Origin: Planktothrix sp. PCC 11201
GTDB lineage: Bacteria > Cyanobacteriota > Cyanobacteriia > Cyanobacteriales > Microcoleaceae
Length of the DNA: 64,000 nt
NCBI RefSeq assembly: GCF_900009135.1
Contig: NZ_LT797688.1
Coordinates: 631,169 to 695,168, forward strand
Direction: 5' to 3'
This document shows positions 5,461 through 36,607 of this stretch, piece after piece; the first letter of the stretch is position 1; each line of letters opens with the position of its first letter. Below the pieces are notes generated by a model that did not search any database, was not told the DNA's origin, and was given only the letters and a program-made list of their open reading frames with translations. The translations under genes were made by a program, and so were the position numbers.

Positions 5461-7728
5461 GTGAAAATACCCTATCTCTTACGCTCAAGTACCCTGGTAT
5501 TCGCAGTTGGGACTTTGTTGATCATCATTGCTTGTCAATCTTCTATATCTATTATGTCTTCTAATACAACACCCCAAACCACCCATAAATCTCACTTTAA
5601 AACCCAGACGGGCGAACAATACGTTTGGAGTCCAGTTAAAATTGGCGGCGGCGGATTTGTGACCGGAATTGTGATTCATCCAACGGTTCCCAATCTGATC
5701 TATGCTAGAACTGATGCCGGGGGAGCTTTTCGTTGGCTGGAAAATGAGCAACGTTGGGAGCAATTGTTGAGTGCCCAAACTATTTCCCAACCCGTGTCCC
5801 TGAATATTGAAAGTCTAGCCATTACTCCCCAAAACCCCAATTTGATTTATCTAGCAGCCGGAGCTTATACTAAAACGAACTCGGGAGAACCACCTTCTGG
5901 GAAATTTTTGAAATCAGAAGATCAGGGGAAATCTTGGCAAATTCTGCCTTTTTCTTTACCGATGGGAGGAAATGAATGGTGGCGCTGGACGGGAGAACGT
6001 TTAGCCATTGATCCGAATAATAGTAATATCGTTTACTTTGGCTCGCGATTAAATGGGTTATGGCACTCTGAAAATGGGGGGAATACTTGGCAACAAATCG
6101 ATCCCCAACAATTACCTCTAGGAAAACCCCATTCTGAAACTCAAAATAAAGCCGGAGTTAGCTTTGTTATTTTTGATCCGAAATCAGGAATATTAGAGGG
6201 GAAAACTCAAAGTATTTATGCAGGAGTATCAGGGGAAGGAATTTATCACAGCAACGACGCCGGAAAAACCTGGCAAGTTTTAAAAAAATTATCGAATTCT
6301 GATTTAGTTCCCCAACAAGCTGTGATCAACTCCAAGGGAGAATTATTCATAACTTTGTATTTGAGGGAAAAAGATCCCCAGGGTGCAGTTTGGAAATTCA
6401 CAACCGAGGGATGGCAAGATATTACTCCCTCCTTGAATAAGAATTATAGTGCCATTACCGTTGATCCCCAAGATAGTAATTCCCTATTTGTTGCCACCTA
6501 TCCTTTGACCCCTACCCGAATTTATCGGTCACAAGATGGGGGAAAAACTTGGATAAAATTAAACAATAATTTGGATCGAATTCCTTGGTGGCCGACTTGG
6601 AGTTGGTGGACATTAACCGGAGGAATTGCTATTGATCCCGTCCATCCTAATCATCTTTGGCTAACCACGGGACTAGGAGTTTTAAAAACAGAAAATAACC
6701 GCGATCAAACTCTTAATTGGTCAGTCCGAGTGAATGGGATCGAGGAAACCGTAACTTTTGATGCCATCAGTCCCCCAGGAGAAGCAAGTTTAATTACTGC
6801 GATCGCCGATCTTGATGGATTTCGTCATCAAAATTTAGACACCTTTCCCCAAACTACCCATGGAAACGGAGCATTTAATACTACTACCAGTCTTGCCTAT
6901 AGTGCAGGTGATCCTAACTTTATTGTTTCTGTGGGTGCAAGTCATCATGATCCCAGTGTAATTCGGGCGGGATTTTCCGAAGATAATGGCAAAACTTGGC
7001 AAAATTTTGCCTCTATTACCCAGAAAACCCATCCTCCCAGTTTAGTCTTTGGGAATGTGGCGGTTTCCGCTACGGATGTTAATAATATTGTCTGGCAACC
7101 TAGTGATAATAAACCGCCCTATTTTACGCAAGATCGAGGGAAAACTTGGCAGAAAATTGATGCTTTTGAACAACCTGATATGGGCGGAGGAGCCCATAGC
7201 CACTTATGGAATAGTCAACAAATTTTAGCCGCCGATGGGGTTAAAGGCGGAACATTTTATCTTTATCATCACGTTAAGGGAAGATTATTTCGCAGTGATG
7301 ATGGGGGGAAAACCTGGAAAATTGTTAATGACAAGCTACCTGGAGGTGTTTGGCAAGGAGCCAGGGTAAAAACTGTTCCCGGTCAAGAGGGAGAAGTTTG
7401 GGTGAGTTTACAAGACCAAGGACTGTATTACTCCCGCAATTTTGGTCAAGATTTTATCAAAATTTCCCAGGTTGAAGAAAGTCAAACCATTGGTTTTGGT
7501 AAAGCAGCCCCCAATCGTCAGAATCTAACGCTGTTTGTTCATGGTAAGATCGCTAATCAATCAGGGGTATTTCGCTCTACAGACTCCGGTACAACTTGGT
7601 TAAGAATAGCTGATTATCCTCTAGGATATTGGGGAAGCTCACGGGTATTAACCGGAGATATGAAAGTATTTGGTCGCGTCTTTTTAGGAACAGGTGGTAA
7701 TGGGTTTATTTATGGACAACCTTTCTGA
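5461..7728 (+). CDS. GH74-like glycoside hydrolase lipoprotein (xyloglucanase type)
   Basis: A 755-residue protein starting at GTG 5461. The N-terminus is a lipoprotein signal (hydrophobic stretch, then IIAC at residues 22-25), so it should be exported and lipid-anchored. The mature part matches GH74: GGGFVTGIVIHPTVPNLIYA followed by RTDAGGAFRW, and AIADLDGFRHQNLDTFP in the middle; these hold the two catalytic aspartates of the family. At least eight Asp-box motifs are visible (SEDQGKSWQ, SENGGNTWQ, SNDAGKTWQ, SQDGGKTW, SEDNGKTWQ, TQDRGKTWQ, SDDGGKTW, STDSGTTW), giving two seven-bladed beta-propellers. GH74 enzymes cleave beta-glucans, mainly xyloglucan. It may trim the neighbouring cluster's polysaccharide or degrade plant or algal glucan. 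Confidence 0.82.
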   Translation: MKIPYLLRSSTLVFAVGTLLIIIACQSSISIMSSNTTPQTTHKSHFKTQTGEQYVWSPVKIGGGGFVTGIVIHPTVPNLIYARTDAGGAFRWLENEQRWEQLLSAQTISQPVSLNIESLAITPQNPNLIYLAAGAYTKTNSGEPPSGKFLKSEDQGKSWQILPFSLPMGGNEWWRWTGERLAIDPNNSNIVYFGSRLNGLWHSENGGNTWQQIDPQQLPLGKPHSETQNKAGVSFVIFDPKSGILEGKTQSIYAGVSGEGIYHSNDAGKTWQVLKKLSNSDLVPQQAVINSKGELFITLYLREKDPQGAVWKFTTEGWQDITPSLNKNYSAITVDPQDSNSLFVATYPLTPTRIYRSQDGGKTWIKLNNNLDRIPWWPTWSWWTLTGGIAIDPVHPNHLWLTTGLGVLKTENNRDQTLNWSVRVNGIEETVTFDAISPPGEASLITAIADLDGFRHQNLDTFPQTTHGNGAFNTTTSLAYSAGDPNFIVSVGASHHDPSVIRAGFSEDNGKTWQNFASITQKTHPPSLVFGNVAVSATDVNNIVWQPSDNKPPYFTQDRGKTWQKIDAFEQPDMGGGAHSHLWNSQQILAADGVKGGTFYLYHHVKGRLFRSDDGGKTWKIVNDKLPGGVWQGARVKTVPGQEGEVWVSLQDQGLYYSRNFGQDFIKISQVEESQTIGFGKAAPNRQNLTLFVHGKIANQSGVFRSTDSGTTWLRIADYPLGYWGSSRVLTGDMKVFGRVFLGTGGNGFIYGQPF

Positions 7729-7768
7729 ATGATTCGTTGAGTTAATTGACATTTTGATCCCCCACAAT

Positions 7769-7803
7769 GCTCCCCCTCATTTTTAATGAGTTTAGAGGGG
7801 AGC
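7769..7803 (+). terminator. Hairpin downstream of the GH74 gene
   Basis: GCTCCCCCT at 7769 pairs with AGAGGGGAGC ending at 7803 around an AT-rich loop, 40 bp after the GH74 stop. It is followed by a short GTGTTTTACC tract rather than a clean T-run. A probable transcription terminator. Confidence 0.5.
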
Positions 7804-8997: not shown

Positions 8998-11900
8998 ATG
9001 CTAATCTACACAACCCCGACATTCGACGCACAAGCGAAACAGCAGGGCATCCAGAGTCAAGTGGCAGAATTACTCGTCACCATCAAGACTCAGGGGACAG
9101 TGGCTGTGCAGGCGCTGTTTGAGTGGAATTATCCCTACTTAAAGCGACCCGTGCGGAACTTGCGTTTACTGGGCAAAATTCTCTGGGTGAATAATGACCC
9201 CATTTTATGTTTATTGGCGGTTTTTCCCCGGGGAGGAAACGAGTATGAGGCATTTTTAAGAAATCCTGATGAATATGGTATCAGTCATTTAGATTCGTTA
9301 ATTGATCCCAAAGAATTAGAAAATAGTATTAATGCTCAACGGGAAGAACAAAAATCCTTTCCCCGTCGCCCCAGTTTGCCCGAAGATTTACGTCAAATTT
9401 GGTTAAAAGGGCCAGATTGGATTAAAAATACCACCGATGCGGTGATTTGTGAAAGTGAAATTTGGGTCACACAATTTAAACAACCCGACACTCAACTGCA
9501 ATGGCGGACTTATTATGACATTGTGGATAGTTTGGTGGAGAAAAAGTCGGGAATTGAAATTACACCCACTGACTTTTTAGGGATTGAAATTGCCGGGCAA
9601 CCGGAGCAAAATCGCTATATTATTTATAGTTGGATTCTCACCTGCGATACTCCCAACCGCAGCGTTTTATTTTTACTTTCTACCTTTGATCATTATCCCA
9701 ATTCCCAGGATATTCTGGAAGTCGGTCAAATCACCCGTCTGTTTAATTCTACTTCGGGAGAAACCTCAGAAAACCCTAATCAAAGTAATATTTTAACCCA
9801 GGAATTAACCTTAGAGGATTTAGCCCGCTATACCCGCCGCTCCTATCCCGATTATTTATTAGGAGATTCGGAAATCTGGTTAGAAATTGAGCAGGAATTT
9901 GGAATTAATTGGGCGTTATCGATGGAGGAAGAAAAAATTCTCCATGAATTATCTACCCCAGAAATTAGTAATAGTTCCCTGCCAGTTTTTATTAATGGAC
10001 GGGCGGGCAGTGGTAAATCAACCATGTTATTTTATCTGTTTGCCGATTATTGTTATCGATATCAAAAATATTATTTACAACATCGTCAACGATTAAACTC
10101 GGTGCCCCATCCTTTGTTTTTAACCTATAATGAACAATTATTAGGGAAAGCCAAAGAAGGGGTAAAAAAACTCCTCAAAAGTCACCATAAATTTCTATTA
10201 GAAGCCGATGGACAGGGAAACAAACCCTCGATTGATATTTGTTTTAAATCCTTTCAACAGTTTTTATTAAGTTTACTCCCCCCAGAAGAAAGCGATAAAT
10301 TTGATCCCGATAAATATATTAGTTTCCATGATTTTAGGCAACGGTGTAGCCGTCGCTATAGTCGTTATTCCCCCGAACTTTGTTGGCATATTATTAGAAC
10401 CTTTATTAAAGGTTATACCCTCACGGGACAAAATGAAGGGTATATGACCCCCGATGATTATGAAGAAATTCCCCGACGAGAACGGAGTTTATCCCTGGAT
10501 ATTTTTCAAGCCATTTATCGGCAAGTTTGGCCTTGGTATTATCAATTAACCACCCGCGAAAGCTATTGGGATGATCAAGATTTGATTAGAAAAGTTTTGG
10601 AATTTAGTGGAGATAATTTACCCGTTTATACGGCTATTTTCTGTGATGAAGCTCAGGATTTTACTAGTTTAGAACTGCGCTTAATTATGCAGTTATCCAT
10701 ATTTTCCCATTGTGATTTATACCCCCCGGTTTGGTGTTTACCCTTTGCCTTTGCTGGAGATCCCTTTCAGACTTTAAACCCCACGGGATTTCGCTGGGAA
10801 AGCGTCAAGGCGACCTTTTTTGATCAAGTGATTGCAGCCCTTGACCCGACGCGAAAACTTAATTTAACCATGACTTTTTATGAGCTTGAATCTAATTATA
10901 GATCAAGTCCTTCCATTGTCAAAGTCACGAATTTAATTCATCTATGGCGACATATTTTATTTAAAATTCAAGAGTTAAGACCCCAGGAGTCTTGGCAATC
11001 TTATCTGGAGTCTCCCACCCCGCAAAAATTTATTTTTGAACAGAATAATTTTTCCGCCGACTCCCTCAAACAACATATTGAAAAATCCCCGATTTTTATT
11101 GTTCCCTGTGAAGCGGGAGGGGAGTTAGACTATATTAGACGAGATGAATTTTTATCCCCTTTATTTCCCGATGCTACGGAAGAAAATCCTCCTAAGAATA
11201 TTTTGAGTGCAATTCAAGCAAAAGGATTAGAATTTCCTCTGGTTATTTTATATAAATTTGGGGATCAATTTGCCAAGGAATTTAATAAAAAACCTTTAAT
11301 TGATTATGTTCAAGGGACGGGGAATCATCCCTTGGAATTAGAATACTTTTTTAATAAACTTTATGTCGCAGCTAGTCGAGGAATGTCGGATTTAGTCATT
11401 ATTGATACGGAAATTGGCGATCGCTGTTTATGGCAATATGCAACAGTTGAAACAGACCCTGCGATAGAGATAGAGACGCGCCGTGGCTCGTCTCTACAGT
11501 ATGATCAATATTGGTTAAATCAAGTTAACAAACCGGAGCATTGGCAAACCTATATCGGAGGAGTCCGTTGGGGGGATAATTTAGATGGATTACAACGGGA
11601 TAACCGAGCCTCCCAAGCCCAAAAATTTGAAGAGAATGGTCGGAATCAAAAAAATGCCGCTGACCTCCGACGGGCGAAACAATTTTATCGAGAATTAGGA
11701 TATTTAGAAAGATCTGATTTATGTGAAGCCTTTGCTTTAAAATTCGATAAACGGTTTCGAGAAGCGGGGCGTTTATTCCTGAAAAGAGGTCAGGAATTAG
11801 AGGCGTGGGAATGTTTCTGGGATGGAATGTGTTGGCAAGCTTTAGCGGAATGGTATCATCAATTTCCCCAGAAAAAAACTATAGAAAAACCCTTGGTTGA

Positions 11901-13314
11901 ATTTATGGCACAAACGTCAAAAACCTTGCCCAATATTCGACAATTTACTCAATTTTTAGAGGAAGGTTTGAGTAGTCAACTGATTAAAGAAAACCGTTTA
12001 GTTAAGGCTTGGAAATCGGCGGTACAGGATTATAGTCGTCAAGTGAGAATATTGATGCGGGAAAAAATCCTAGACCCGGAAGAATGGCAACGGTTAGGAG
12101 AGGTTTTAGAGGGATTAGATGAAGCCAAATACCATGGGGTTTTAGAATTAGCTGGAGATTGTTATTATCGGGCTAAAAACTTACGTCGGGCTGTTCGGTG
12201 TTGGCAAGAAAGCGGGGCAAATCAAAAACGAGAATATTATCTGGCTAAAGCTGAATTATCGGGATTTCCTGAAGGTTTACCCTATTTGGAAAAAGCCTTA
12301 GATTTTGAACGAATTATTGTGGAATGGGAAAAATCTGGGAAGTCGGGAAATCAACAATGGATTAAACAGTTAGATTGTTTAGGACGGGCTTTAGAGCGAC
12401 AAAATCGTCTGCGGGATTGGATTAATTATTTAATTAGAATTAAACGTTGGATTGATGCGATCGCAGCGATCGAAAAATGTGGTAAACTAGAGACCATTCT
12501 ATTTAGGTTTGAACTAATTCGACAAATTTCCCGTTCTAATTTAACCCCTGAACAAGCCAGGGATTTTCGGGGTCGCTATTTAGCCTTAATTGAAAAAGCC
12601 CTATCGGTCTCCAACTGGCGACAAAAGTTAGCCGTGGTTGAGGTGGGAATTGCTTTAGAAAAAATTGGGGAATTAGTCCCCACTCTTAAATTTTATGAGC
12701 GATTTATTAGTAGTAATGAACCCGCTTTAAAACAGTTTGCTCAACAACGATGGTTAGCAACTAAACTCAAACAAAAAGAATATGCCTTAGTTGCCGAACC
12801 CATCCGGGCGCAGGAAATTCAACAAGATATTACTCGCCGGGCCAAGGATTGGAACATCGATCCCACCACCCTCAATTCCGACCCTCCCCGGGTGGATTTA
12901 ATCGAAAATCCCAAATTACTCCAACTTTCGCCTCCCGACCCCTCCCAGGCGAATCCTGACCTGGATGATGACAGGGTTCAGGGTCTACCCCCCGGCACAA
13001 AAATCCGCCTTTTGGGGCCAGAAGCCGATGGCTTTAGTTTCCAAATTGGTCATATTCAAGTTAAACGAGCCAAACGGAATAATAGTTTATGGGTACTTTT
13101 GACGGATATTTATAGTTCCAAAGCCCTACAAATTGATGTCGATGGGATACAAGGAAAAGTCAGAATTGGAGAATTAATATTAGAAGTGGCTGACGGTCAT
13201 CAACTTTCTTTTAATAGTATTACAGGAGATTATCGAGGCACGGTTTTTTATCGAGATGAAAAGCCGAGGGTAGAGTTGCATATTCGGGGAATTTCTAGTA
13301 TTATCTCCCTTTAA
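8998..13314 (+). CDS. Large UvrD/Rep-like (SF1) helicase with helical-repeat C-terminal region
   Basis: A 1438-residue protein. Residues 1-80 resemble a small RelE/ParE-like fold (MLIYTTPTFDAQAKQQG, LLGKILWVNNDPILCLLAVF), which is only a guess. From about residue 335 the SF1A helicase motifs follow in order: Walker A GRAGSGKST, motif II IFCDEAQDF, motif III AFAGDPFQTL, motif IV ESNYRSS, motif V AIQAKGLEFPLVIL and motif VI YVAASRG (about residue 790). Residues 870-1270 are helical, TPR-like (LGYLERSDLCEAFALKFDKR, CYYRAKNLRRAVRCWQES). The last 130 residues form a beta-rich domain (KIRLLGPEADGFSFQIG). Such long helicases are not housekeeping UvrD/PcrA; a DNA-repair or genome-defence role is inference. 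A palindromic repeat is inserted in frame near residue 830. Confidence 0.82.
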   Translation: MLIYTTPTFDAQAKQQGIQSQVAELLVTIKTQGTVAVQALFEWNYPYLKRPVRNLRLLGKILWVNNDPILCLLAVFPRGGNEYEAFLRNPDEYGISHLDSLIDPKELENSINAQREEQKSFPRRPSLPEDLRQIWLKGPDWIKNTTDAVICESEIWVTQFKQPDTQLQWRTYYDIVDSLVEKKSGIEITPTDFLGIEIAGQPEQNRYIIYSWILTCDTPNRSVLFLLSTFDHYPNSQDILEVGQITRLFNSTSGETSENPNQSNILTQELTLEDLARYTRRSYPDYLLGDSEIWLEIEQEFGINWALSMEEEKILHELSTPEISNSSLPVFINGRAGSGKSTMLFYLFADYCYRYQKYYLQHRQRLNSVPHPLFLTYNEQLLGKAKEGVKKLLKSHHKFLLEADGQGNKPSIDICFKSFQQFLLSLLPPEESDKFDPDKYISFHDFRQRCSRRYSRYSPELCWHIIRTFIKGYTLTGQNEGYMTPDDYEEIPRRERSLSLDIFQAIYRQVWPWYYQLTTRESYWDDQDLIRKVLEFSGDNLPVYTAIFCDEAQDFTSLELRLIMQLSIFSHCDLYPPVWCLPFAFAGDPFQTLNPTGFRWESVKATFFDQVIAALDPTRKLNLTMTFYELESNYRSSPSIVKVTNLIHLWRHILFKIQELRPQESWQSYLESPTPQKFIFEQNNFSADSLKQHIEKSPIFIVPCEAGGELDYIRRDEFLSPLFPDATEENPPKNILSAIQAKGLEFPLVILYKFGDQFAKEFNKKPLIDYVQGTGNHPLELEYFFNKLYVAASRGMSDLVIIDTEIGDRCLWQYATVETDPAIEIETRRGSSLQYDQYWLNQVNKPEHWQTYIGGVRWGDNLDGLQRDNRASQAQKFEENGRNQKNAADLRRAKQFYRELGYLERSDLCEAFALKFDKRFREAGRLFLKRGQELEAWECFWDGMCWQALAEWYHQFPQKKTIEKPLVEFMAQTSKTLPNIRQFTQFLEEGLSSQLIKENRLVKAWKSAVQDYSRQVRILMREKILDPEEWQRLGEVLEGLDEAKYHGVLELAGDCYYRAKNLRRAVRCWQESGANQKREYYLAKAELSGFPEGLPYLEKALDFERIIVEWEKSGKSGNQQWIKQLDCLGRALERQNRLRDWINYLIRIKRWIDAIAAIEKCGKLETILFRFELIRQISRSNLTPEQARDFRGRYLALIEKALSVSNWRQKLAVVEVGIALEKIGELVPTLKFYERFISSNEPALKQFAQQRWLATKLKQKEYALVAEPIRAQEIQQDITRRAKDWNIDPTTLNSDPPRVDLIENPKLLQLSPPDPSQANPDLDDDRVQGLPPGTKIRLLGPEADGFSFQIGHIQVKRAKRNNSLWVLLTDIYSSKALQIDVDGIQGKVRIGELILEVADGHQLSFNSITGDYRGTVFYRDEKPRVELHIRGISSIISL
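11471..11496. repeat. 26-bp palindromic repeat inserted in the helicase CDS
   Basis: TAGAGACG at 11471 mirrors CGTCTCTA ending at 11496, with an imperfectly symmetric core (CGCCGTGGCT). Relatives occur at 13363-13391 and 55257-55284. Here it is translated as the linker IETRRGSSLQ between helicase and repeat region. Confidence 0.7.
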
Positions 13315-28466: not shown

Positions 28467-28823
28467 ATGGCGGGTTTCGGAGATCTTGTCCAAAAAGCGG
28501 TTTATTTAGGGGTGGGTTTAGCCTCCTATGCGGGTGAAAAAGCTAGTAAAACTCTGGCAGAATTACGCACAGATGCCCAAAAACTAGCCGATGAGCTAGT
28601 CAAGCGGGGCGAAATGACCACAGAAGAAGCGCGTCGTTTTGTGGAAGATACGATTCAGCAAGTGCAACAACCGACGAATGAACCCACGCCCCCATCCAAA
28701 AAACCAGAACCTCGTCGGATTGAGATTTCTGATGATGATGATTCTGGGGATAATGGGGTTGATCAGTTAAAAGACCAGGTGCGGGATTTACAGGAGGAAT
28801 TGCGTCGTCTCCAGAAAGATTAG
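28467..28823 (+). CDS. Phasin-like/PhaF-type helical protein
   Basis: A 118-residue protein. Residues 1-65 are an amphipathic helix region like polyhydroxyalkanoate granule or phasin-family proteins (FGDLVQKAVYLGVGLASYAG, KLADELVKRGEMTTEEARRF). A proline-rich linker (PTPPSKKPEPRR), an acidic patch (SDDDDSGDNG) and a C-terminal coiled coil (DQLKDQVRDLQEELRRLQKD) follow. Small proteins of this type are common in cyanobacteria; whether this one coats granules is not known. It lies directly after the SRP RNA and ends at a hairpin terminator. Confidence 0.7.
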   Translation: MAGFGDLVQKAVYLGVGLASYAGEKASKTLAELRTDAQKLADELVKRGEMTTEEARRFVEDTIQQVQQPTNEPTPPSKKPEPRRIEISDDDDSGDNGVDQLKDQVRDLQEELRRLQKD

Positions 28824-28948: not shown

Positions 28949-29356
28949 ATGGAAGATTGGTCAAAAAGTATTGTAGAAGCGATAGAAACAACCGTTTCTG
29001 ACATGGAGAAGTTTTTTACAGACGTGACTGAAGAATTGAACGAAATACTAAACGAACTCACCAAGATCTCGGAAGAAATTACCGATGAGGTACAAAATAA
29101 AATTCTTCCCGAATTGGATGAATATATCAATGATATCTTTGAACCGATTATTGATATTTATTTGGATTTGGATTTAGAGGACGAGGATGAACATTTTGAT
29201 CCCTTTGTCACATATATTCAACCCACGGAAACCGAACATCCGGCTTGTCGAGGATGCCAACATTATCACGGACAAGTTTATGGGGGAAATTTATTAGTTT
29301 GTGGAATGCACCCAATGGGTGCCCAAGCAGAAACCTGTCCAGACTGGGAAGGGTAA
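28949..29356 (+). CDS. Acidic protein with C-terminal Cys/His metal-site motif
   Basis: A 135-residue protein. Residues 1-75 are very acidic and helical, probably coiled coil (SDMEKFFTDVTEELNEILNE). The C-terminal 40 residues carry ACRGCQHYHGQVYGG, LLVCGMHPMG and ETCPDWEG: four cysteines and several histidines with the spacing of a small metal-binding domain. I recall this C-terminal motif from conserved hypothetical proteins of cyanobacteria but know no function. It lies just outside the plasmid-like island. Confidence 0.65.
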   Translation: MEDWSKSIVEAIETTVSDMEKFFTDVTEELNEILNELTKISEEITDEVQNKILPELDEYINDIFEPIIDIYLDLDLEDEDEHFDPFVTYIQPTETEHPACRGCQHYHGQVYGGNLLVCGMHPMGAQAETCPDWEG

Positions 29357-29551
29357 TTACGAATTACAAATTGCGAATTGCGAATTACGAGTGAGTAATG
29401 GGGATTGATTTTTTAGGTTTTCTAATAATTGAGTTTCTGACTTGGGATAATCAGTTAATAAATTCACCATTAACTGATGACTGATAACTGAATTAACTGA
29501 TAACTGTTAACTGATGACTGATAACTGAATTGACTGATGACTGATAACTGT
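29357..29551. repeat. Heptamer-rich intergenic repeat (ATTACGA and ACTGATA types)
   Basis: 29357-29392 repeats TTACGAATTACAAATTGCGA-like units; 29460-29551 repeats TAACTGATGACTGATAACTG-like units. These are the short tandemly repeated sequences known from filamentous cyanobacteria. The block forms the left edge of the island, and the next gene's start codon abuts it. Confidence 0.75.
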
Positions 29552-30904
29552 ATGCCTCAAATTCCCTTATCTTTGCATCTACGAGAGTATCAACAGCAAG
29601 CGGTGAATAACTGGTTTGCTAATCGAGGGCGGGGAACGTTAAAAATGGCAACGGGAAGCGGTAAAACCATTACTGCTTTGGCGATCGCTACTCAATTATA
29701 TGATCAAATTAGATTACAAGCAATTATCATTATTTGCCCCTATCGCCATTTAGTAATTCAATGGGAAAAGGAGGCTAAAAAGTTTGGATTACAACCGATT
29801 TTAGCTTTTGAAAGTGTCCGTCATTGGCAAAAACAATTATCGGTGGAACTCTATCAATTAAGAGCCGGAACTCAGTCTTTTTTAACGGTTATTACCACTA
29901 ATTCTACCTTAATTTCTGAAGGTTTGCAATCTCAAATTCGTTATTTTCCTGAAAAAACTCTGATCATTGGGGATGAAGCCCATAATTTAGGAAGTCCCAA
30001 GTTAGAAGAAAGTTTACCCCGAAATATTGGCTTGAGATTAGCCCTTTCTGCGACTCCTGAACGACATTTTGACCAAAGTGGCAGCGATGCTATTTTAGAG
30101 TATTTTGGGCCAGTTTTACAACCGGAATTAACCCTAGCTGAAGCCATTCGTCAAGGGGCGTTAGTGCGGTATTTATATTATCCAATTTTAGTCGAATTAA
30201 CCGAAGCCGAAAGTCGAGCTTATCATCGATTAACCACTCGCATTGGTTGGGCATTGATCAAGGATAAAGACTGGGAACAGAACGAAACTATCACCGCTTT
30301 ATTAATTCAAAGATCTCGGTTAATTGCCTCCGCCAGTAATAAGTTAGATGCCCTACGTCAGTTAATGAAAACCCGGTTACATACAACTCATACTTTATTT
30401 TATTGTGGGGATGGCAGTGTAGAAACCCTAGAGGATTATTCCCCCCGACAATTAGAAGCCACGGTTGAATTGTTAGGGTCAGAATTAGGATATCGGGTGA
30501 ATACTTATACCGCCGAAACTCCTTTAATTGAACGGGAAAAATTACGCCAACAATTTGAACAAGGAGAATTACAAGGGTTAGTTGCTATTCGTTGTTTAGA
30601 TGAAGGAGTTGATATTCCAGCGATTAAAAATGCGGTAATATTAGCTAGTAGTTGTAATCCTCGGCAATTTATTCAGCGACGGGGAAGAATATTAAGACCC
30701 CATCCAGGGAAAGAAAGGGCAACGTTATTTGATATGATTGTATTACCGCCAGATTTGGATAGAAATACCTTAGAAGTTGAACGAAATTTGTTAAGAAAAG
30801 AGTTAAAAAGGTTTTTGGAATTTGCCAATTTAGCTGATAATGCCGGGGAAGCGAGATTAAAATTACTTCAGTTACAAAAACGATATGGGTTATTAGATTT
30901 ATAA
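29552..30904 (+). CDS. DEAH-box helicase-like protein, dnd-associated restriction enzyme type
   Basis: A 450-residue SF2 helicase. Motifs: Walker A ATGSGKT (about residues 33-39), DEAH in LIIGDEAHNLGSP (about 139), SAT in LALSATPERH (about 166), and motif VI FIQRRGRILRPHPGKERA (about 374). Length and the lack of a nuclease domain match the family that public annotation calls the DNA phosphorothioation system restriction enzyme, from memory. It precedes dndD in the same orientation, which supports that reading. I start it at ATG 29552; an in-frame ATG 15 bp upstream lies in repeat DNA. No clear ribosome binding site is visible. Confidence 0.72.
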   Translation: MPQIPLSLHLREYQQQAVNNWFANRGRGTLKMATGSGKTITALAIATQLYDQIRLQAIIIICPYRHLVIQWEKEAKKFGLQPILAFESVRHWQKQLSVELYQLRAGTQSFLTVITTNSTLISEGLQSQIRYFPEKTLIIGDEAHNLGSPKLEESLPRNIGLRLALSATPERHFDQSGSDAILEYFGPVLQPELTLAEAIRQGALVRYLYYPILVELTEAESRAYHRLTTRIGWALIKDKDWEQNETITALLIQRSRLIASASNKLDALRQLMKTRLHTTHTLFYCGDGSVETLEDYSPRQLEATVELLGSELGYRVNTYTAETPLIEREKLRQQFEQGELQGLVAIRCLDEGVDIPAIKNAVILASSCNPRQFIQRRGRILRPHPGKERATLFDMIVLPPDLDRNTLEVERNLLRKELKRFLEFANLADNAGEARLKLLQLQKRYGLLDL

Positions 30905-30927
30905 TCTTATTTTGGATTGCAAATTTC

Positions 30928-30972
30928 GTTGTTGGGCTTTAGCCCCTCCCCGGAGCGCTGAAGCGCAACAAC
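30928..30972. repeat. Dispersed palindromic repeat (GTTGTTG...CAACAAC)
   Basis: GTTGTTGGGCTTTAGC at 30928 mirrors the sequence GCTGAAGCGCAACAAC ending at 30972 with two mismatches. It lies in the 147-bp gap between the helicase and the small ORF, and may attenuate transcription. Confidence 0.6.
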
Positions 30973-31051
30973 GGGCAACAATGGCAAGAAGTTGACAAAA
31001 TATTGTAATATTGAGGGTAGTGCCGACTGCCATAATAAGGGGATAATTAAA

Positions 31052-31291
31052 ATGTTTAAATATTCTGAAAGTATTATTACCACTATTGCTAATGTTTTCT
31101 CGGAGAAAAAATCTACCTATGGGGATAACATTAATCCTAAAGAAGCTCAAGACCCGATTATCAATGCTTCCCCAGAAGTGCGAGAAATTATTGAACGGGT
31201 ATTACAAGCGGAACGAGATAAATTGTATATGAAAAATCCCCGTAATATTAATGATGATATTCTCAAAATTATTAAGGATGTGGTGAAATGA
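31052..31291 (+). CDS. Small protein of unknown function, coupled to dndD
   Basis: A 79-residue protein starting at ATG 31052 with AAGGGG nine bases upstream; an in-frame start 60 bp further upstream lacks such a site. The sequence is helical and charged (ASPEVREIIERVLQAERDKL, NPRNINDDILKIIKDVVK). Its stop overlaps the dndD start as ATGA, implying translational coupling and probably a stoichiometric partner. It is not recognisable as DndE, which has a different N-terminus. Function unknown. Confidence 0.6.
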   Translation: MFKYSESIITTIANVFSEKKSTYGDNINPKEAQDPIINASPEVREIIERVLQAERDKLYMKNPRNINDDILKIIKDVVK

Positions 31292-33354
31292 GATTAATTT
31301 CAATTCAACTCTGTAACTTTCGACAATTCTATGGGAAAACTCCAGAAATTCATTTAGGGTTTGGAGAAAAGAATACAACGGTTATTCATGGTAATAATGG
31401 AGCCGGAAAAACCACCTTAATGAATGCTTTCACTTGGGTTTTATATGAAAAGTTTAGTGCAGCATTTTCTATTTCTGAACACCTTGTTAATAAACGAGCT
31501 TTAAATGAAGCCGAACCTACAAAAGCCATAGGATGTTGGGTTGAATTAGTTTTTGATCATGATCATAAACGATATTCAGTTAAACGCATTTGTCGAGCGT
31601 ATAAAAATGGGAATGAGATAGAACAGAGTCGCAGTGAATTATCAATGCAGGTGGCTGGAGATGATGGCCGATGGGCAATACCACCTCACCCACCGGAGGA
31701 AATTATTAATCGAATTTTACCCTTAAGTTTACATCAATATTTCTTTTTTGATGGAGAGAGAATTGAGCAAATTGTTAGGGATGAACGCAAAGTAGAAATT
31801 TCTGATGCGACTAAGGAATTATTAGGGGTAGAAGTTTTAAATCGAGCCATCAAACATTTGGGAGAGGCTAAAAAATCCTTAGAAACGGATTTAGCAATTA
31901 TTGGCAACCCCGAAACTAAAAAATATTTACAAGACAAGAAAAAAGCCGAACAGGAAATTGATAAATTGTCGCAAAGACATACAGAAATTAATCAAGAATT
32001 AGATAACCAAAAACAGCTAAAACTAACCCTAAGTGAGAGATTAATGGAGTTGAGTGGGGCGGCGGAATTACAAAAGTTGCGGGATGAATTAGAGCGCAAA
32101 AAACAATCATTACGAGAACAACTCCATCAAGCTCATGTTGCCATTAATCGGGCTATTTCTACTAAAGCCTATACGGTTTTAATCCCGGAATTAACGGCGG
32201 AATTTAGAAGTTTATTTTCAGGTATGCGAGAACGAGGAGAGTTAAATACTGGAATTACAAAACAGTTTGTGCAAAATTTATTAGAGCAAAAAAAGTGTAT
32301 TTGTGGGGCGGAATTAATTTCTGGAAAAACTGAATGTGCACAGGTTGAACACCTATTAAATCGGGCTGGGACTGCGGATATTGATGAAACGGCGATTCGT
32401 TTGAGTACCCAAGTCGATGAATTAGATAAACAAGGGATTCAATTTTGGGAAGAAATTAATCGTCAACAACTTAATATTCAAACTTGTAGAGAGGAATTAC
32501 AAAGGGTTGAAAATGAACTCGATAGTATTACTAATAAACTTAGAAAGTTTCCTGATGAGGACATTCAGGAGTTACAAAAACGTGTAGATGAAATTGAACT
32601 TAAAATTAGTGAAATGAATCGAGAAACAGGTTCAAATCAGCAACAAATCCAAACCTTTAAACAGACTATTGAGAGTTTATCTCGACAAATCGATAAGCAG
32701 CAAATGAATGAAATGAAACAACTCTTAGTTCAAAGAAGAATTGCGGTTACTCAGGATACGATTCTGCGTTTAAATGAAGTTAAAGACCGTTTAGACCAAC
32801 AATTTCGCTATCAGTTAGAAAAACGAGTTCAGAAGCTATTTAGTCAAATTTCCTTTACGCCTTATGTACCCAAATTAACCGAAAAATATGAATTAAAATT
32901 AGTAGAAACTACCGCCGGAGAGGAGGCCGAAGTCGCCGCTTCCACGGGAGAAAATCAAATTTTAAGTTTATCATTTATTGGGGGAATTATTGAAGGGGTG
33001 AGGGAATGGAGTCAAAAAAATACCTTAATGGGCCCCGATAGTAGTACCTTTCCGATTGTTATGGACTCTCCTTTTGGCAGTTTAGATGAAATTTATCGCC
33101 GACAAATTGCGAGTATTATTCCTCAATTAGCGAATCAATTAATTGTTTTAGTAACTAAAACCCAATGGCGAGGAGAAGTGGCGCGAGAAATGGAAAAACG
33201 TATCGGACGGGAATATATTTTATCCTACAATTCTCCTAAAACCGATTGTGAGGAAGACTGGATAGAATTAGCCGGAAATCGTTATCCCTTAGTCCATCAA
33301 AGTCCCAATGAATTTGAATATACGGAAATTTTAGAAGTAGAATATGATTTTTAA
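31288..33354 (+). CDS. dndD: DNA sulfur modification-type ATPase DndD
   Basis: A 688-residue SMC/RecF-like ATPase. Residues 1-45 contain LISIQLCNFRQFYGK and Walker A IHGNNGAGKTTLMNAF. RERIEQIVRDERKVE and LPLSLHQYFFFDGERIEQIV follow, typical of DndD. Two long coiled coils flank a short hook-like stretch KKCICGAELISG (about residues 336-347). The C-terminal half has the signature-like STGENQILSLSFIGG and Walker B FPIVMDSPFGSLDEIYRR. In dnd systems DndD acts with DndC and DndE in DNA phosphorothioation, or in restriction. No dndA, B, C or E is in this window. It overlaps the upstream small ORF by 4 bp. Confidence 0.85.
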   Translation: MRLISIQLCNFRQFYGKTPEIHLGFGEKNTTVIHGNNGAGKTTLMNAFTWVLYEKFSAAFSISEHLVNKRALNEAEPTKAIGCWVELVFDHDHKRYSVKRICRAYKNGNEIEQSRSELSMQVAGDDGRWAIPPHPPEEIINRILPLSLHQYFFFDGERIEQIVRDERKVEISDATKELLGVEVLNRAIKHLGEAKKSLETDLAIIGNPETKKYLQDKKKAEQEIDKLSQRHTEINQELDNQKQLKLTLSERLMELSGAAELQKLRDELERKKQSLREQLHQAHVAINRAISTKAYTVLIPELTAEFRSLFSGMRERGELNTGITKQFVQNLLEQKKCICGAELISGKTECAQVEHLLNRAGTADIDETAIRLSTQVDELDKQGIQFWEEINRQQLNIQTCREELQRVENELDSITNKLRKFPDEDIQELQKRVDEIELKISEMNRETGSNQQQIQTFKQTIESLSRQIDKQQMNEMKQLLVQRRIAVTQDTILRLNEVKDRLDQQFRYQLEKRVQKLFSQISFTPYVPKLTEKYELKLVETTAGEEAEVAASTGENQILSLSFIGGIIEGVREWSQKNTLMGPDSSTFPIVMDSPFGSLDEIYRRQIASIIPQLANQLIVLVTKTQWRGEVAREMEKRIGREYILSYNSPKTDCEEDWIELAGNRYPLVHQSPNEFEYTEILEVEYDF

Positions 33355-33556: not shown

Positions 33557-36500
33557 ATGGACTATTTAACAGAATGGACAGAAAGTGGTGTAGATGAAGA
33601 ACTCACTCAACTGAATGTGATTCCTTTAGAGGGGTATCGTCCGTTGGATTATCTTCTCTATTCCGATACCCTGCCGCGATTAAATACAGGTCGGATATCT
33701 CAGCCTATTCTTAACCGTTATCAACATCTTTATCATGGGGGTTGGTGGTGTTCCGGGATTGATATTTTGACGGGAAATCCTGATTTATGGGGCTGTTTTA
33801 AGCCGATTAAACCCCGTTTGACTTCAGACGAGTGTAAATTAATTAAATATGAACATCCTCCCAACACACCTATGGGGATTTTTGCACTTAGAATTTCTCG
33901 AACAATTTGGGAACAAATTGCTCAAAAATATGGGGTTAAAATTAATCCTTCTGATCTACAAACCCATCAACCCGACTTAGGATTTTGGCGATGGGTGATT
34001 GCTCATCCCGAACTACCTTTATGTATTACAGAAGGAGCAAAAAAAGCCGGAGCATTACTCACAGCCGGATATATTGCGATCGCACTTCCAGGGATTCATA
34101 GCGGGTATCGAGTTCCCCGAGATAAATATGGAAATAGAATTGCTAAACCTGCTTTGATTCAGCAGTTACAGCAATTTGTCAATCCCAATCGTAAAATTTA
34201 TATGGTATTTGATCAAGATACCAAACCTAGAACTATTAAAGCCGTCAATTCAGCTATTCAGCAAACGGGATATTTATTGACAAAAGCAGAATGTTCTGTG
34301 TATATAGTCACCTGGAATCCCAAGTTAGGTAAGGGAGTTGATGATTTAATTTCAGAACAAAGTAAAACTATATTTGAGCAGGCTTATCAAACTGCAAAAC
34401 CCTTAGAAACCTGGAAGGCTTTCTCCTTTAATCGGTTAACTTATCCAGCAAATATTGATCTAAATAGTCGTTATTTATCCTCAATAAAAATACCTGAATC
34501 CGCTAAATTAATTGCGATTAAATCTCCTAAAGGAACCGGAAAAACTAAAATTTTAGAAAACATAGTTCAAGAAGCAATTAAAAACGGTAAGTGGGTATTA
34601 GTCATTGGTCATCGAGTTCGATTAATTGAAGCCCTCTGTCAACGATTTGGATTACAATATATGAAATCCCCTATTGACACCCATAATTCGGCTTTAGGAT
34701 ATGGATTATGTATTGATTCTCTCCATCCTAATTCTGGGGTAAAATTTCAAGCCAAAGATTGGTCAAATGGGTTAGTTATTTTAGATGAAGTTGAACAAGT
34801 ATTATGGCATGGATTAAACTCAGAAACCTGTCAAAACCATCGGGTTTCTATCCTTAAATCCTTTAAAACCCTGATGCAAAATATTTTAGGGGGAAAGGGT
34901 CAAGTGGTGATTTCCGATGCCGATTTAAGTGATATTTCCATTGATTATTTAACTAGCCTATCGGGGGTACATCTGCAACCTTTTATTATTCAAAATGAAT
35001 GGCAACCCTCAAGGAATGAAGCCTGGAAAATTCATAATTACTTAGGAAATACCCCCGACCAACTAGTGAAAGACCTAGAACAACATATTGCCGAAGGGGG
35101 GAAACCTTTTGTGTGTTTGTCTGCTCAAAAATTAGCCAGTCAATGGGGAACTCGTACCCTAGAAACCTATTTACAAACCCAATTTCCCGATCGCTCTATT
35201 TTAAGAATAGATTCCGAATCCTTAGCCGATCCCAGCCATCAAGCCTATGGCGCAATTTCTAATTTGAATCATGTGCTAAAACAGTATGATATTGTATTAG
35301 CATCGCCCTCAATTGAAACGGGAGTTAGTATTGAGATTAATAACCATTTTACCTCGGTTTGGGGAATATTTCAAGGGATTCAAGCGGAAAATTCTGTTCG
35401 TCAAGCCTTGGGACGAATTCGAGAGAATATTCCGCGATTTATTTGGATGGCAAACCGAGGATTTAATCAGGTAGGAAATGGGGCAACCTCCATGAGTTCT
35501 TTACTCAGTAGTGGACAAAAATTAACCCGCCTCAATATTCGTCTATTACAACAATCTGATTTTGAAGAATTAGATGATTTAGAAATAGGATTTCAAGCGG
35601 AATCCTTAATGGGTTGGGCAAAAATGGCAGTGCGATTTAATGCAGGCATGGCGCGTTATCGAGAGACAATTTTAACTGCGTTAATGGCAGAGGGTCATCA
35701 AATTATTGAGATGCCACAGGCTAAAAAAATACCTAAAAATTCGATTAAATCCACTCAAAAATTTAAACCCGAATGTTCAGAACGTCCTAGTCTCAACGAA
35801 CTAATTCTAGCAGTCAAAGATCAGAATTATCAAGCGGAATCCGTGGCGGTGATTAACGCCCCAGATCTGAGCGATAGTCAATATTACTATCTCCAACAAC
35901 AATTAGTCAAAACCCCGGAAGAACGCCGGGCTATCCGTAAACATGAGTTGAAATTACGTTATGGTATTGCTGTTAATTCAGATGTGATTAATAAAGATGA
36001 TCAAGGATGGTATGAACAACTCAGAATCCACTATTTCTTAACCGTTGGTCGTCCCTATTTAATCGGTCGAGATGCCCTGATTGCTAGACGGTTAATGGAA
36101 CAGGGACAGGGAAATATTTTTGCTCCTGATTTTAACCGTTCTCAGTTAGGAGCTATCATTGGGATTATGGAATTATTAGGGATTCCTGCCTTACTCAAAA
36201 ATCCAAAACGAGATTTAAAAAATACCGATGCTGACTTACAAACCATTGCCGAAATAGCCCTAAAAGATCGCAATGCCATCAAGACTATTATTGGTATTGG
36301 ACTGGCTAAAAATTCAAGTCCGATTACTATTTTACGGCGGTTTTTAGATAAAATTGGTTATCGTTTAACCTGTGTGCGATCCCAAAGTGAAGGTAAGAAA
36401 CGAGTCCGAGTTTATCACCTGGTTGACCCCCAAGATAACCGAGAAGAAATCCTGCAACATTGGTTAAAATTAGAGGGTCAATATCCGGGTCAATTAGACA

Positions 36501-36607
36501 GAATTTTATCTAAAAATACGCCTGCTCCTGACCCTTTCCGATTCACTCCTGACTATATCCAACTCTCTTTATTTATGCCAGGTAATAGTTATAGCAAGAG
36601 GCAATAG
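33557..36607 (+). CDS. CyRepA1-type plasmid replication protein (primase-helicase-like)
   Basis: A 1016-residue protein. The N-terminal part carries a DUF3854/TOPRIM-like domain: LPLCITEGAKKAGALLTAGY (about residues 152-171), ALPGIHSGYR, and IYMVFDQDTKPRT (about 213). A helicase-like part follows: Walker A IKSPKGTGKTKILENI (about 322), Walker B LVILDEVEQVL (about 408), and ASPSIETGVSIEINNHF and SVRQALGRIRENIPRFI further on. This matches the cyanobacterial plasmid replication family CyRepA1. ATG 33557 is preceded by GGGAGAG. In a chromosomal setting it suggests an integrated plasmid or plasmid-derived island together with the dnd-type genes upstream. Confidence 0.85.
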   Translation: MDYLTEWTESGVDEELTQLNVIPLEGYRPLDYLLYSDTLPRLNTGRISQPILNRYQHLYHGGWWCSGIDILTGNPDLWGCFKPIKPRLTSDECKLIKYEHPPNTPMGIFALRISRTIWEQIAQKYGVKINPSDLQTHQPDLGFWRWVIAHPELPLCITEGAKKAGALLTAGYIAIALPGIHSGYRVPRDKYGNRIAKPALIQQLQQFVNPNRKIYMVFDQDTKPRTIKAVNSAIQQTGYLLTKAECSVYIVTWNPKLGKGVDDLISEQSKTIFEQAYQTAKPLETWKAFSFNRLTYPANIDLNSRYLSSIKIPESAKLIAIKSPKGTGKTKILENIVQEAIKNGKWVLVIGHRVRLIEALCQRFGLQYMKSPIDTHNSALGYGLCIDSLHPNSGVKFQAKDWSNGLVILDEVEQVLWHGLNSETCQNHRVSILKSFKTLMQNILGGKGQVVISDADLSDISIDYLTSLSGVHLQPFIIQNEWQPSRNEAWKIHNYLGNTPDQLVKDLEQHIAEGGKPFVCLSAQKLASQWGTRTLETYLQTQFPDRSILRIDSESLADPSHQAYGAISNLNHVLKQYDIVLASPSIETGVSIEINNHFTSVWGIFQGIQAENSVRQALGRIRENIPRFIWMANRGFNQVGNGATSMSSLLSSGQKLTRLNIRLLQQSDFEELDDLEIGFQAESLMGWAKMAVRFNAGMARYRETILTALMAEGHQIIEMPQAKKIPKNSIKSTQKFKPECSERPSLNELILAVKDQNYQAESVAVINAPDLSDSQYYYLQQQLVKTPEERRAIRKHELKLRYGIAVNSDVINKDDQGWYEQLRIHYFLTVGRPYLIGRDALIARRLMEQGQGNIFAPDFNRSQLGAIIGIMELLGIPALLKNPKRDLKNTDADLQTIAEIALKDRNAIKTIIGIGLAKNSSPITILRRFLDKIGYRLTCVRSQSEGKKRVRVYHLVDPQDNREEILQHWLKLEGQYPGQLDRILSKNTPAPDPFRFTPDYIQLSLFMPGNSYSKRQ

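What the first reader, a model, noticed from the sequence alone, without database searches (positions are those of the whole stretch)
29552..33354. Incomplete dnd-type locus: restriction-like helicase, small protein and DndD without dndA/B/C/E
DndD and a DEAH helicase matching the dnd-linked restriction family are adjacent and co-oriented, with a 79-residue ORF overlapping dndD by ATGA. The modification core (dndB, dndC, dndE, cysteine desulfurase) is absent from at least 29 kb on either side within this window. It may be a split system, a modification-independent defence module, or a degrading remnant; all three frames look intact, arguing against decay.
Basis: partly seen in the sequence, partly recalled or inferred. 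Interest (0 to 1): 0.75.

Follow-up and report, generated by a model that had tools for sequence, protein, structure and literature searches.

The report
Scattered cyanobacterial DNA-sulfur defence genes
These three genes look like one piece of a complete virus-defence system, tied to a sulfur tag on DNA, whose other pieces lie elsewhere in the same cyanobacterial genome, and they belong to a widespread form that lacks the DNA-cutting domain of its relatives.

Summary
The three genes are real and intact, but two labels change. The 'DndD' is PbeC, a CxC-type ATPase (PADLOC PbeC 1080 bits; TIGR03185 DndD 173 bits, cut-off 245.85). The helicase is PbeA (TIGR04095, 669 bits, cut-off 600) without the N-terminal HKD/PLD domain. 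The 79-aa ORF is a conserved gene in the PbeB position.

Absence of dnd genes is an effect of the window. The same Planktothrix-like genome holds pbeD on contig C28, dndC, dndD, a dndB-like and an HNH gene on C29, and dndE on C24: a Dnd-Pbe set split over four contigs.

Of 386 cyanobacterial genomes, 105 are in this order. Matches to pbeA, pbeC, dndC and dndE all occur in 86 of the 105 and none in 9. Of 31 near-closed genomes with all five genes (pbeD added), 8 hold them in one cluster and 11, from three families, at five separate places.

In the order the best PbeA match is short in 92 of 92 genomes.

Best reading: an apparently long-kept phosphorothioate defence system with a nuclease-less Pbe arm, probably blocking replication rather than cutting (inferred).

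The parts
29537..30904 (+). pbeA, short form: SF2 (DEAH) helicase, 455 aa, without the N-terminal HKD/PLD domain
   Evidence: TIGR04095 669 bits over 2-451/451; PADLOC PbeA PDLC02704 544 bits, but only profile positions 243-681 of 682; Pfam ResIII and Helicase_C, no PLDc
31052..31291 (+). small protein (79 aa) in the PbeB position
   Evidence: No family match. A homologue occurs at all 80 named PbeC loci kept. dN/dS 0.02-0.11. AlphaFold2 model: first 30 residues weak (block means about 60), C-terminal helices 41-58 and 66-78 at about 80-90, mean pLDDT 76
31288..31291 (+). ATGA stop/start overlap of the small gene and pbeC
   Evidence: Sequence. The same 4-base overlap in 70 of the 72 named loci that have the small gene within 200 bp of a full-length pbeC
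31288..33354 (+). pbeC: CxC-type ABC ATPase, 688 aa
   Evidence: PADLOC PbeC 1080 bits. GNNGAGKTT, CICG (CxC), STGENQ and VMDSPFGSLD are conserved in 18 aligned sequences, with small variations in some rows
28467..28823 (+). phasin-like gene: conserved neighbour upstream of pbeA, not part of the system
   Evidence: Homologue upstream on the same strand in 22 of 22 fetched loci where it was found (a few genomes occur twice among the loci)
28949..29356 (+). 135-aa gene without Pfam match: conserved neighbour upstream of pbeA, not part of the system
   Evidence: Homologue upstream on the same strand in 23 of 23 fetched loci where it was found (a few genomes occur twice among the loci)

Best explanation
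The trio is the pbeA-(small gene)-pbeC part of a phosphorothioate-linked Dnd-Pbe defence system whose other genes (pbeD; dndB-like, dndC, dndD; dndE) lie at other chromosomal places. By homology, DndC/D/E with a housekeeping cysteine desulfurase put phosphorothioate (PT) marks on the cell's DNA. The Pbe arm (helicase, small protein, CxC ATPase, PbeD) engages DNA that lacks the mark. The PbeA of this order lacks the HKD nuclease domain of its long relatives, so the arm most likely halts invader replication by helicase/ATPase action rather than by cutting. Shown here: the genes, their intactness in this genome, the co-occurrence, the scattering and the missing nuclease domain. Inferred: PT marking, PT dependence, defence and the non-cutting mode. 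Identity as a split Dnd-Pbe system about 0.9; non-cutting replication block about 0.5.
For: (1) Family assignments. (2) Partners in the own genome on C28, C29 and C24. In the near-closed same-genus genome G255 (one 5.46-Mb contig) the trio lies at 3.76 Mb, pbeD at 4.07 Mb and HNH/dndC/dndE at 5.27 Mb. (3) Relatives carry the parts together: pbeA, small gene, pbeC, then pbeD, with dndC, dndD and mostly dndE, dndB or HNH nearby in L051, L056, L060, L065. The same two genes lie upstream of pbeA in the window and in relatives, so the window seems to keep one end of an old cluster. (4) Co-occurrence in the order (105 genomes): pbeA x dndC 89 both, 3 only pbeA, 4 only dndC, 9 neither; all four genes in 86, none in 9. 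In 80 genomes searched pbeD passes the cut-off in 67; the 9 that lack the other genes have none or, in one, a relic. Controls: of 14 known genomes none rings for TIGR04095 at E<=1e-60, PF08870 or TIGR04062, one for TIGR03183 below its cut-off. (5) Relics: G385 has broken pieces of dndB, dndC, dndD, dndE and pbeA together; G268 keeps a pbeD relic with five stops. (6) Purifying selection on all three window genes. (7) Published haloarchaeal PbeABCD blocks viral replication without visible cutting, needs PT, and its pbeA is only partly required (PMC6459918, sections read), which fits a PbeA without nuclease domain.
Against: No PT measurement, phage test or expression data. Discordant genomes: dndC not found in G070, G159 and G170, which have pbeA and pbeC (G170 has a DndC-like fragment); pbeA alone in G051; dndC and dndE without pbeA, pbeC and pbeD in G080 and G211. 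The counts are of matches: at least nine of the 86 genomes with all four have one gene partial or with an in-frame stop (pbeC in G127, G145, G151, G155, G187, G334; pbeA in G054; dndC in G174, G360). On an rpoC1 tree the losses collapse to 5 changes for each pbe gene, and no independent-pairs sign test that I saw is significant (median p 0.5 for pbeA against pbeC, pbeD or dndC; 0.125 for dndE against dndC); the Fisher values ignore relatedness. Vertical descent was not tested with gene trees. The small gene matched no PbeB model. An HNH gene beside dndC could supply cutting in this genome.
Confidence: 0.66

Rival explanations
1. A PT-linked system that does cut, with the HNH protein next to dndC supplying the nuclease that PbeA lacks.
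For: Own genome has an HNH gene beside dndC that resembles NF045808 PT-DNA-binding restriction endonuclease (119 bits, cut-off 180). Homologues lie beside pbeD or dndC in several relatives.
Against: Patchy: 26 of 80 genomes searched have a match at E<=1e-20, some of them partial or with stops; of the 65 among them that have short pbeA, 20 do. Below the curated cut-off of its nearest model. It may be a nuclease independent of Pbe.
Confidence: 0.15
2. A domesticated housekeeping function: the PT mark and Pbe proteins serve genome maintenance or stress response in this order, not virus defence.
For: Near-universal in the order (86 of 105 with all four genes), kept in 11 of 31 near-closed genomes although all five genes sit apart, short PbeA, conserved chromosomal neighbours. 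A 2021 paper proposed an antioxidant role for cyanobacterial dnd and vertical descent of DndD (PMC8569181, passages and section 7).
Against: The parts are homologues of a tested antiviral system; several lineages have lost the whole set, so it is not essential there.
Confidence: 0.15
3. A modification-independent defence module that does not need PT.
For: G070, G159 and G170 have pbeA and pbeC without a dndC match at E<=1e-40; Xiong et al. report 320 of 553 pbeAC without dndCD within 10 kb (PMC6459918).
Against: This genome has dndC, dndD and dndE as open frames. In the order pbeA occurs with dndC in 89 of the 92 genomes that have it. The 10-kb rule would call this genome solitary.
Confidence: 0.06
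4. A decaying remnant.
For: pbeD and the dnd genes are not adjacent; short PbeA lacks a domain of its long relatives; some other genomes carry partial or interrupted copies.
Against: In this genome no stops and dN/dS 0.02-0.11 across four genomes of the genus; short form and gene order conserved in the order. Clear remnants look different (G385, G268).
Confidence: 0.03

Closest known systems
Dnd-PbeABCD system of haloarchaea (PMC6459918)
   Same: PbeA-type helicase, small protein and PbeC ATPase in this order, about 152-157-aa PbeD downstream in relatives (152 aa in the archaeon), dndC, dndD and dndE in the same genome
   Different: PbeA lacks the HKD/PLD domain; genes at separate chromosomal places; a PbeB match could not be shown by sequence; near-universal in one order
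CxC ABC-ATPase systems (PMC10853773)
   Same: CxC ATPase, SF2 helicase, small partly disordered protein; that paper equates PbeABCD with these
   Different: No HKD domain on the helicase; 'cyanobacteri' does not occur in that paper's main text
NCBIfam TIGR04095 (dnd_restrict_1) and TIGR04062 (dnd_assoc_4)
   Same: These models already name the short PbeA and the PbeD-like protein as PT-linked
   Different: Their names as shown do not say that the parts form one Pbe system that can be scattered, or that the nuclease domain is missing
PT-system restriction enzyme noted beside dndBCDE in Microcoleus (PMC8546630, passages)
   Same: A PT-linked restriction gene near dnd genes in a cyanobacterium, with dnd genes on different contigs in some strains
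   Different: That paper reads split clusters as incomplete; the passages seen do not name Pbe or a missing nuclease domain
DndFGH restriction module
   Same: Also a PT-linked restriction partner
   Different: Not sought here; reported absent from cyanobacteria in PMC8569181 (passages)

Membership tests
Pbe module (PbeABCD / CxC system) | PbeA: helicase fused to HKD/PLD nuclease domain | tested here: not met
   Helicase part matches (669 bits). HKD part missing: PADLOC PbeA aligned only from position 243, no PLDc. BLAST with the N-termini of 7 long PbeA against ORFs of the window, L004, L016 and L046-L165 found only the 7 long PbeA
Pbe module (PbeABCD / CxC system) | PbeC: CxC-type ABC ATPase | tested here: met
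   PADLOC PbeC 1080 bits; CICG motif conserved in the alignment
Pbe module (PbeABCD / CxC system) | PbeB: small protein between PbeA and PbeC | tested here: inconclusive
   Right place and size, conserved, ATGA-coupled, but no PADLOC match at E<=5
Pbe module (PbeABCD / CxC system) | PbeD (about 152 aa) in the genome | tested here: met
   TIGR04062 186 bits at G000:C28:271696-272148, intact 156-aa ORF. Equation of TIGR04062 with PbeD rests on position and length
Pbe module (PbeABCD / CxC system) | PbeD is a DndE-type protein | tested here: inconclusive
   hhalign of shallow alignments gives no relation (prob 0.3%); one weak PADLOC DndE match E=0.0085 in one of three scanned
Dnd PT modification core | dndC, dndD, dndE intact in the genome | tested here: met
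Dnd PT modification core | dndA or substitute cysteine desulfurase | tested here: inconclusive
   8 Aminotran_5 matches, two above 480 bits; none shown to act as DndA
Dnd PT modification core | Phosphorothioate in DNA | not testable with these tools
   Needs mass spectrometry
   173 bits against 245.85; the DndD on C29 scores 656
PT-DNA-binding HNH endonuclease (NF045808), for the C29 HNH | Score above the curated cut-off | tested here: not met
   119 bits against 180

The most novel reading that the evidence does not exclude
A whole order of cyanobacteria keeps, as near-core chromosomal genes, a nuclease-free PT-reading system that stops foreign replication by helicase/ATPase action alone, and its genes stay functionally tied although in some lineages no two of the five genes tested are neighbours.
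Probability: 0.35. Interest if true: 0.72.

Novelty: new variant of a known kind. Interest (0 to 1): 0.52.

Why it matters
Two published readings would change. PMC8569181 states that PT restriction systems are absent from cyanobacteria and infers an antioxidant origin of dnd (passages and section 7 seen; 'pbe' does not occur in its main text). Here a PbeA-type partner accompanies dndC in 89 of the 93 order genomes that have dndC. It is not the first sign: PMC8546630 (passages) noted a PT-system restriction enzyme beside dnd genes in Microcoleus, but reads split clusters as incomplete. PMC6459918 counts pbeAC without dndCD within 10 kb as solitary; in scattered genomes such as this one that rule fails. 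A natural PbeA without nuclease domain makes the open question 'does Pbe cut?' directly testable. Defence finders that require neighbouring genes could miss such systems (inference).

Tried and rejected
DndD label: rejected. First idea that PbeD is missing and one DndE serves both ATPases: held, rejected when the 58-locus cluster of a 156-aa gene proved to be TIGR04062 and was found on C28. HNH as general nuclease partner: rejected as a general rule (26 of 80). Separate HKD gene beside short PbeA: none found in the ORFs compared. PbeD-DndE profile comparison: no signal. The motif H-x-K-x4-D was found in none of the 7 long PbeA; they share HEK and GSxNE, and PLDc_2 scores 20.9 (below its cut-off of 27) and 30.6 bits in the two scanned. 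Of 100 PbeA proteins above 400 bits in the fetched loci, 98 were under 620 aa; my simple motif pattern DE[AC]H was not found in 23 of these 98 and Q[RA].GR not in one more (not followed up). Literature: the listings and the passages or sections that I opened of five papers showed no description of the scattered cyanobacterial Dnd-Pbe set; the other listed papers, among them the review PMC12707154, were not opened. PMC2442094 (passages) notes dnd genes in Microcystis with dndC-D-E still clustered. Not searched: dndFGH, ssp genes, DNA methylases.

Limits of counts: the 80-genome lists were chosen by hand: 78 of the 105 order genomes, including all 9 that lack the four genes, plus G170 and G193. 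The tree used 79 of 80 (G131 gave no rpoC match) and many of its forks are open; output was cut, so not all pair tests were seen. The 31 near-closed genomes are those of the 80 with at most 10 contigs and matches to all five genes; the 11 with five places belong to three families (f2, f7, f8), and three of the 11 (G054, G145, G187) have one gene partial or with a stop. dndD, the small gene and dndB were not located in all of these genomes. The chance estimate for shared loss branches (4 of 5 shared between pbeA and pbeC, about 1e-6) assumes equal branches and my own reading of a partly unsupported tree. Short forms in the order include three broken or partial matches (G054, G159, G385). The named loci are the best 80 of 505 confirmed and cover mainly close relatives; some genomes occur in both locus sets.
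Full report
What is there. Three intact genes lie on the + strand: a 455-aa helicase (29537-30904), a 79-aa protein (31052-31291) and a 688-aa ABC ATPase (31288-33354); the last two overlap by ATGA. The helicase is TIGR04095 dnd_restrict_1 at 669 bits (cut-off 600) and PADLOC PbeA, but aligned only to positions 243-681 of the 682-position PbeA profile. The ATPase scores 173 bits with the DndD model (cut-off 245.85) and 1080 bits with a PbeC model; it carries the CICG motif. So the locus is pbeA-small gene-pbeC, not helicase-DndD.

Where the rest is. The genome (5.99 Mb, 103 contigs; the named Planktothrix records L086 and L088 have PbeC 94% and 92% identical) holds dndC (704 bits) and dndD (656 bits) on contig C29, next to an HNH gene and a dndB-like gene (PF14072 60 bits, DGQHR 158 bits); dndE on C24 (155 bits), near an ORF that I read as ftsZ (that name is recalled, not scanned); and pbeD (TIGR04062, 186 bits) on C28 as an intact 156-aa ORF. 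In the same-genus near-closed genome G255 the trio, pbeD and HNH/dndC/dndE lie at 3.76, 4.07 and 5.27 Mb of one contig.

How it came about. In some relatives the parts stand together: L051 holds pbeA, small gene, pbeC, pbeD, dndB, dndC, dndD and dndE within 15 kb. A pbeD homologue was found in 58 fetched loci; in 57 it lies on the same strand downstream of pbeC and/or pbeA, in the other no partner was placed. The phasin-like gene and the 135-aa gene upstream of the window's pbeA are also upstream in relatives (22 and 23 loci, all same strand; some genomes counted twice). The window therefore seems to keep one end of an old cluster (inference). Downstream the window has a CyRepA1-type gene, found in the same place in 5 loci, two of them probably one genome.

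Distribution. In 386 cyanobacterial genomes pbeA occurs in 98, dndC in 94, pbeC in 93 (one a fragment, G060) and dndE in 96. In the window's order (105 genomes) all four have matches in 86 and none in 9; pairwise Fisher values run from 5e-8 to 3e-12 without correction for relatedness. At least nine of the 86 have one gene partial or with an in-frame stop. pbeD passes its cut-off in 67 of 80 genomes searched; a 68th, G268, has only a relic with five stops, and the other eight genomes that lack the four genes have nothing. Exceptions in the order: G051 pbeA only; G080 and G211 dndC and dndE without pbeA, pbeC, pbeD; G326 without pbeA and with a stop in pbeC; G070 and G159 without dndC; G097 without pbeC; G008 without dndE; G058 a dndC part only; G385 broken pieces. 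On an rpoC1 tree of 79 genomes pbeA, pbeC and pbeD each need 5 changes, dndC 9, dndE 7; the independent-pairs tests seen are not significant because there are too few events. Linked loss is thus suggestive, not proven.

Scattering. Of 31 near-closed genomes with matches to all five genes, 8 have one cluster (neighbours within 20 kb), 7 two, 3 three, 2 four and 11 have all five genes apart. The 11 come from three families, and three of them have one gene partial or with a stop.

The nuclease domain. In the order the best PbeA match is short in 92 of 92 genomes (open frames 373-550 aa, three of them partial or broken); five of these genomes also have a long second copy (688-698 aa). The six genomes outside the order with a match have a long form (714-757 aa). 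Long forms carry PLDc_2-like N-termini (30.6 and 20.9 bits in the two scanned, cut-off 27) with shared HEK and GSxNE. BLAST with the N-termini of seven long PbeA found no separate copy among the ORFs of the fetched loci. For most genomes the lack of the domain is inferred from length alone.

Is it alive? dN/dS is 0.066-0.110 for pbeA, 0.022-0.111 for the small gene and 0.081-0.106 for pbeC over four genomes of the genus. The small gene has homologues at all 80 named PbeC loci kept, lies within 200 bp of a full-length pbeC in 72 of 77, and overlaps it by ATGA in 70 of these 72. Its model has confident C-terminal helices and a weak first third, in keeping with the small, mostly disordered protein described for these systems (PMC10853773, sections read).

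How it most likely works. In haloarchaea PbeABCD needs PT, spares PT-marked virus, blocks replication and leaves viral DNA intact on Southern blots; pbeB, pbeC and pbeD are essential there, pbeA only partly (PMC6459918, sections read). The cyanobacterial form keeps pbeC, pbeD and a small gene, and its pbeA lacks the nuclease half, as a non-cutting mechanism would allow. PMC10853773 argues for cutting because the vast majority of systems have the HKD domain; this order is an exception to that. Inferred, not shown: PT marking, PT dependence, defence.

Standing. Known parts, known kind. New, as far as my searches go, are the nuclease-less form as the rule in an order, the genome-wide scattering with co-occurrence, and the recognition of the set as Dnd-Pbe in cyanobacteria, which PMC8569181 describes as lacking PT restriction systems although PMC8546630 saw a PT-linked restriction enzyme in Microcoleus. 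The searches were made; subscription journals and supplements were not seen.

Noticed in passing
window 33557-36607: CyRepA1-family plasmid-replication-type protein (562 bits, cut-off 200) with DUF3854 directly downstream of pbeC, on an 850-kb contig; found in the same place in five Planktothrix-like loci.
   Followed up: partly
window 29470-29550: Heptamer tandem repeat (TAACTGA, about 11 copies) running into the start of pbeA.
   Followed up: no
L091, L092, L093 (Okeania), about 6834-7800: Several 40-47-aa ORFs that match PbeC stand in a row between the small gene and full-length pbeC; which part of PbeC they match was not checked.
   Followed up: no
L104, L109, L135: A second, long PbeA (656-671 aa) lies 2-3 kb downstream of pbeC at a short-PbeA locus; its N-terminus is of the HKD-like type.
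   Followed up: no
L004 11546-11780: Run of N in the own genome close behind dndD, where some relatives have dndE, flanked by C-rich tandem repeats.
   Followed up: no
L178 7340-7666: 108-aa ORF directly upstream of pbeD on C28; family not scanned.
   Followed up: no
window 8998-13314: 1438-aa ORF without any Pfam match at E<=1e-5.
   Followed up: no
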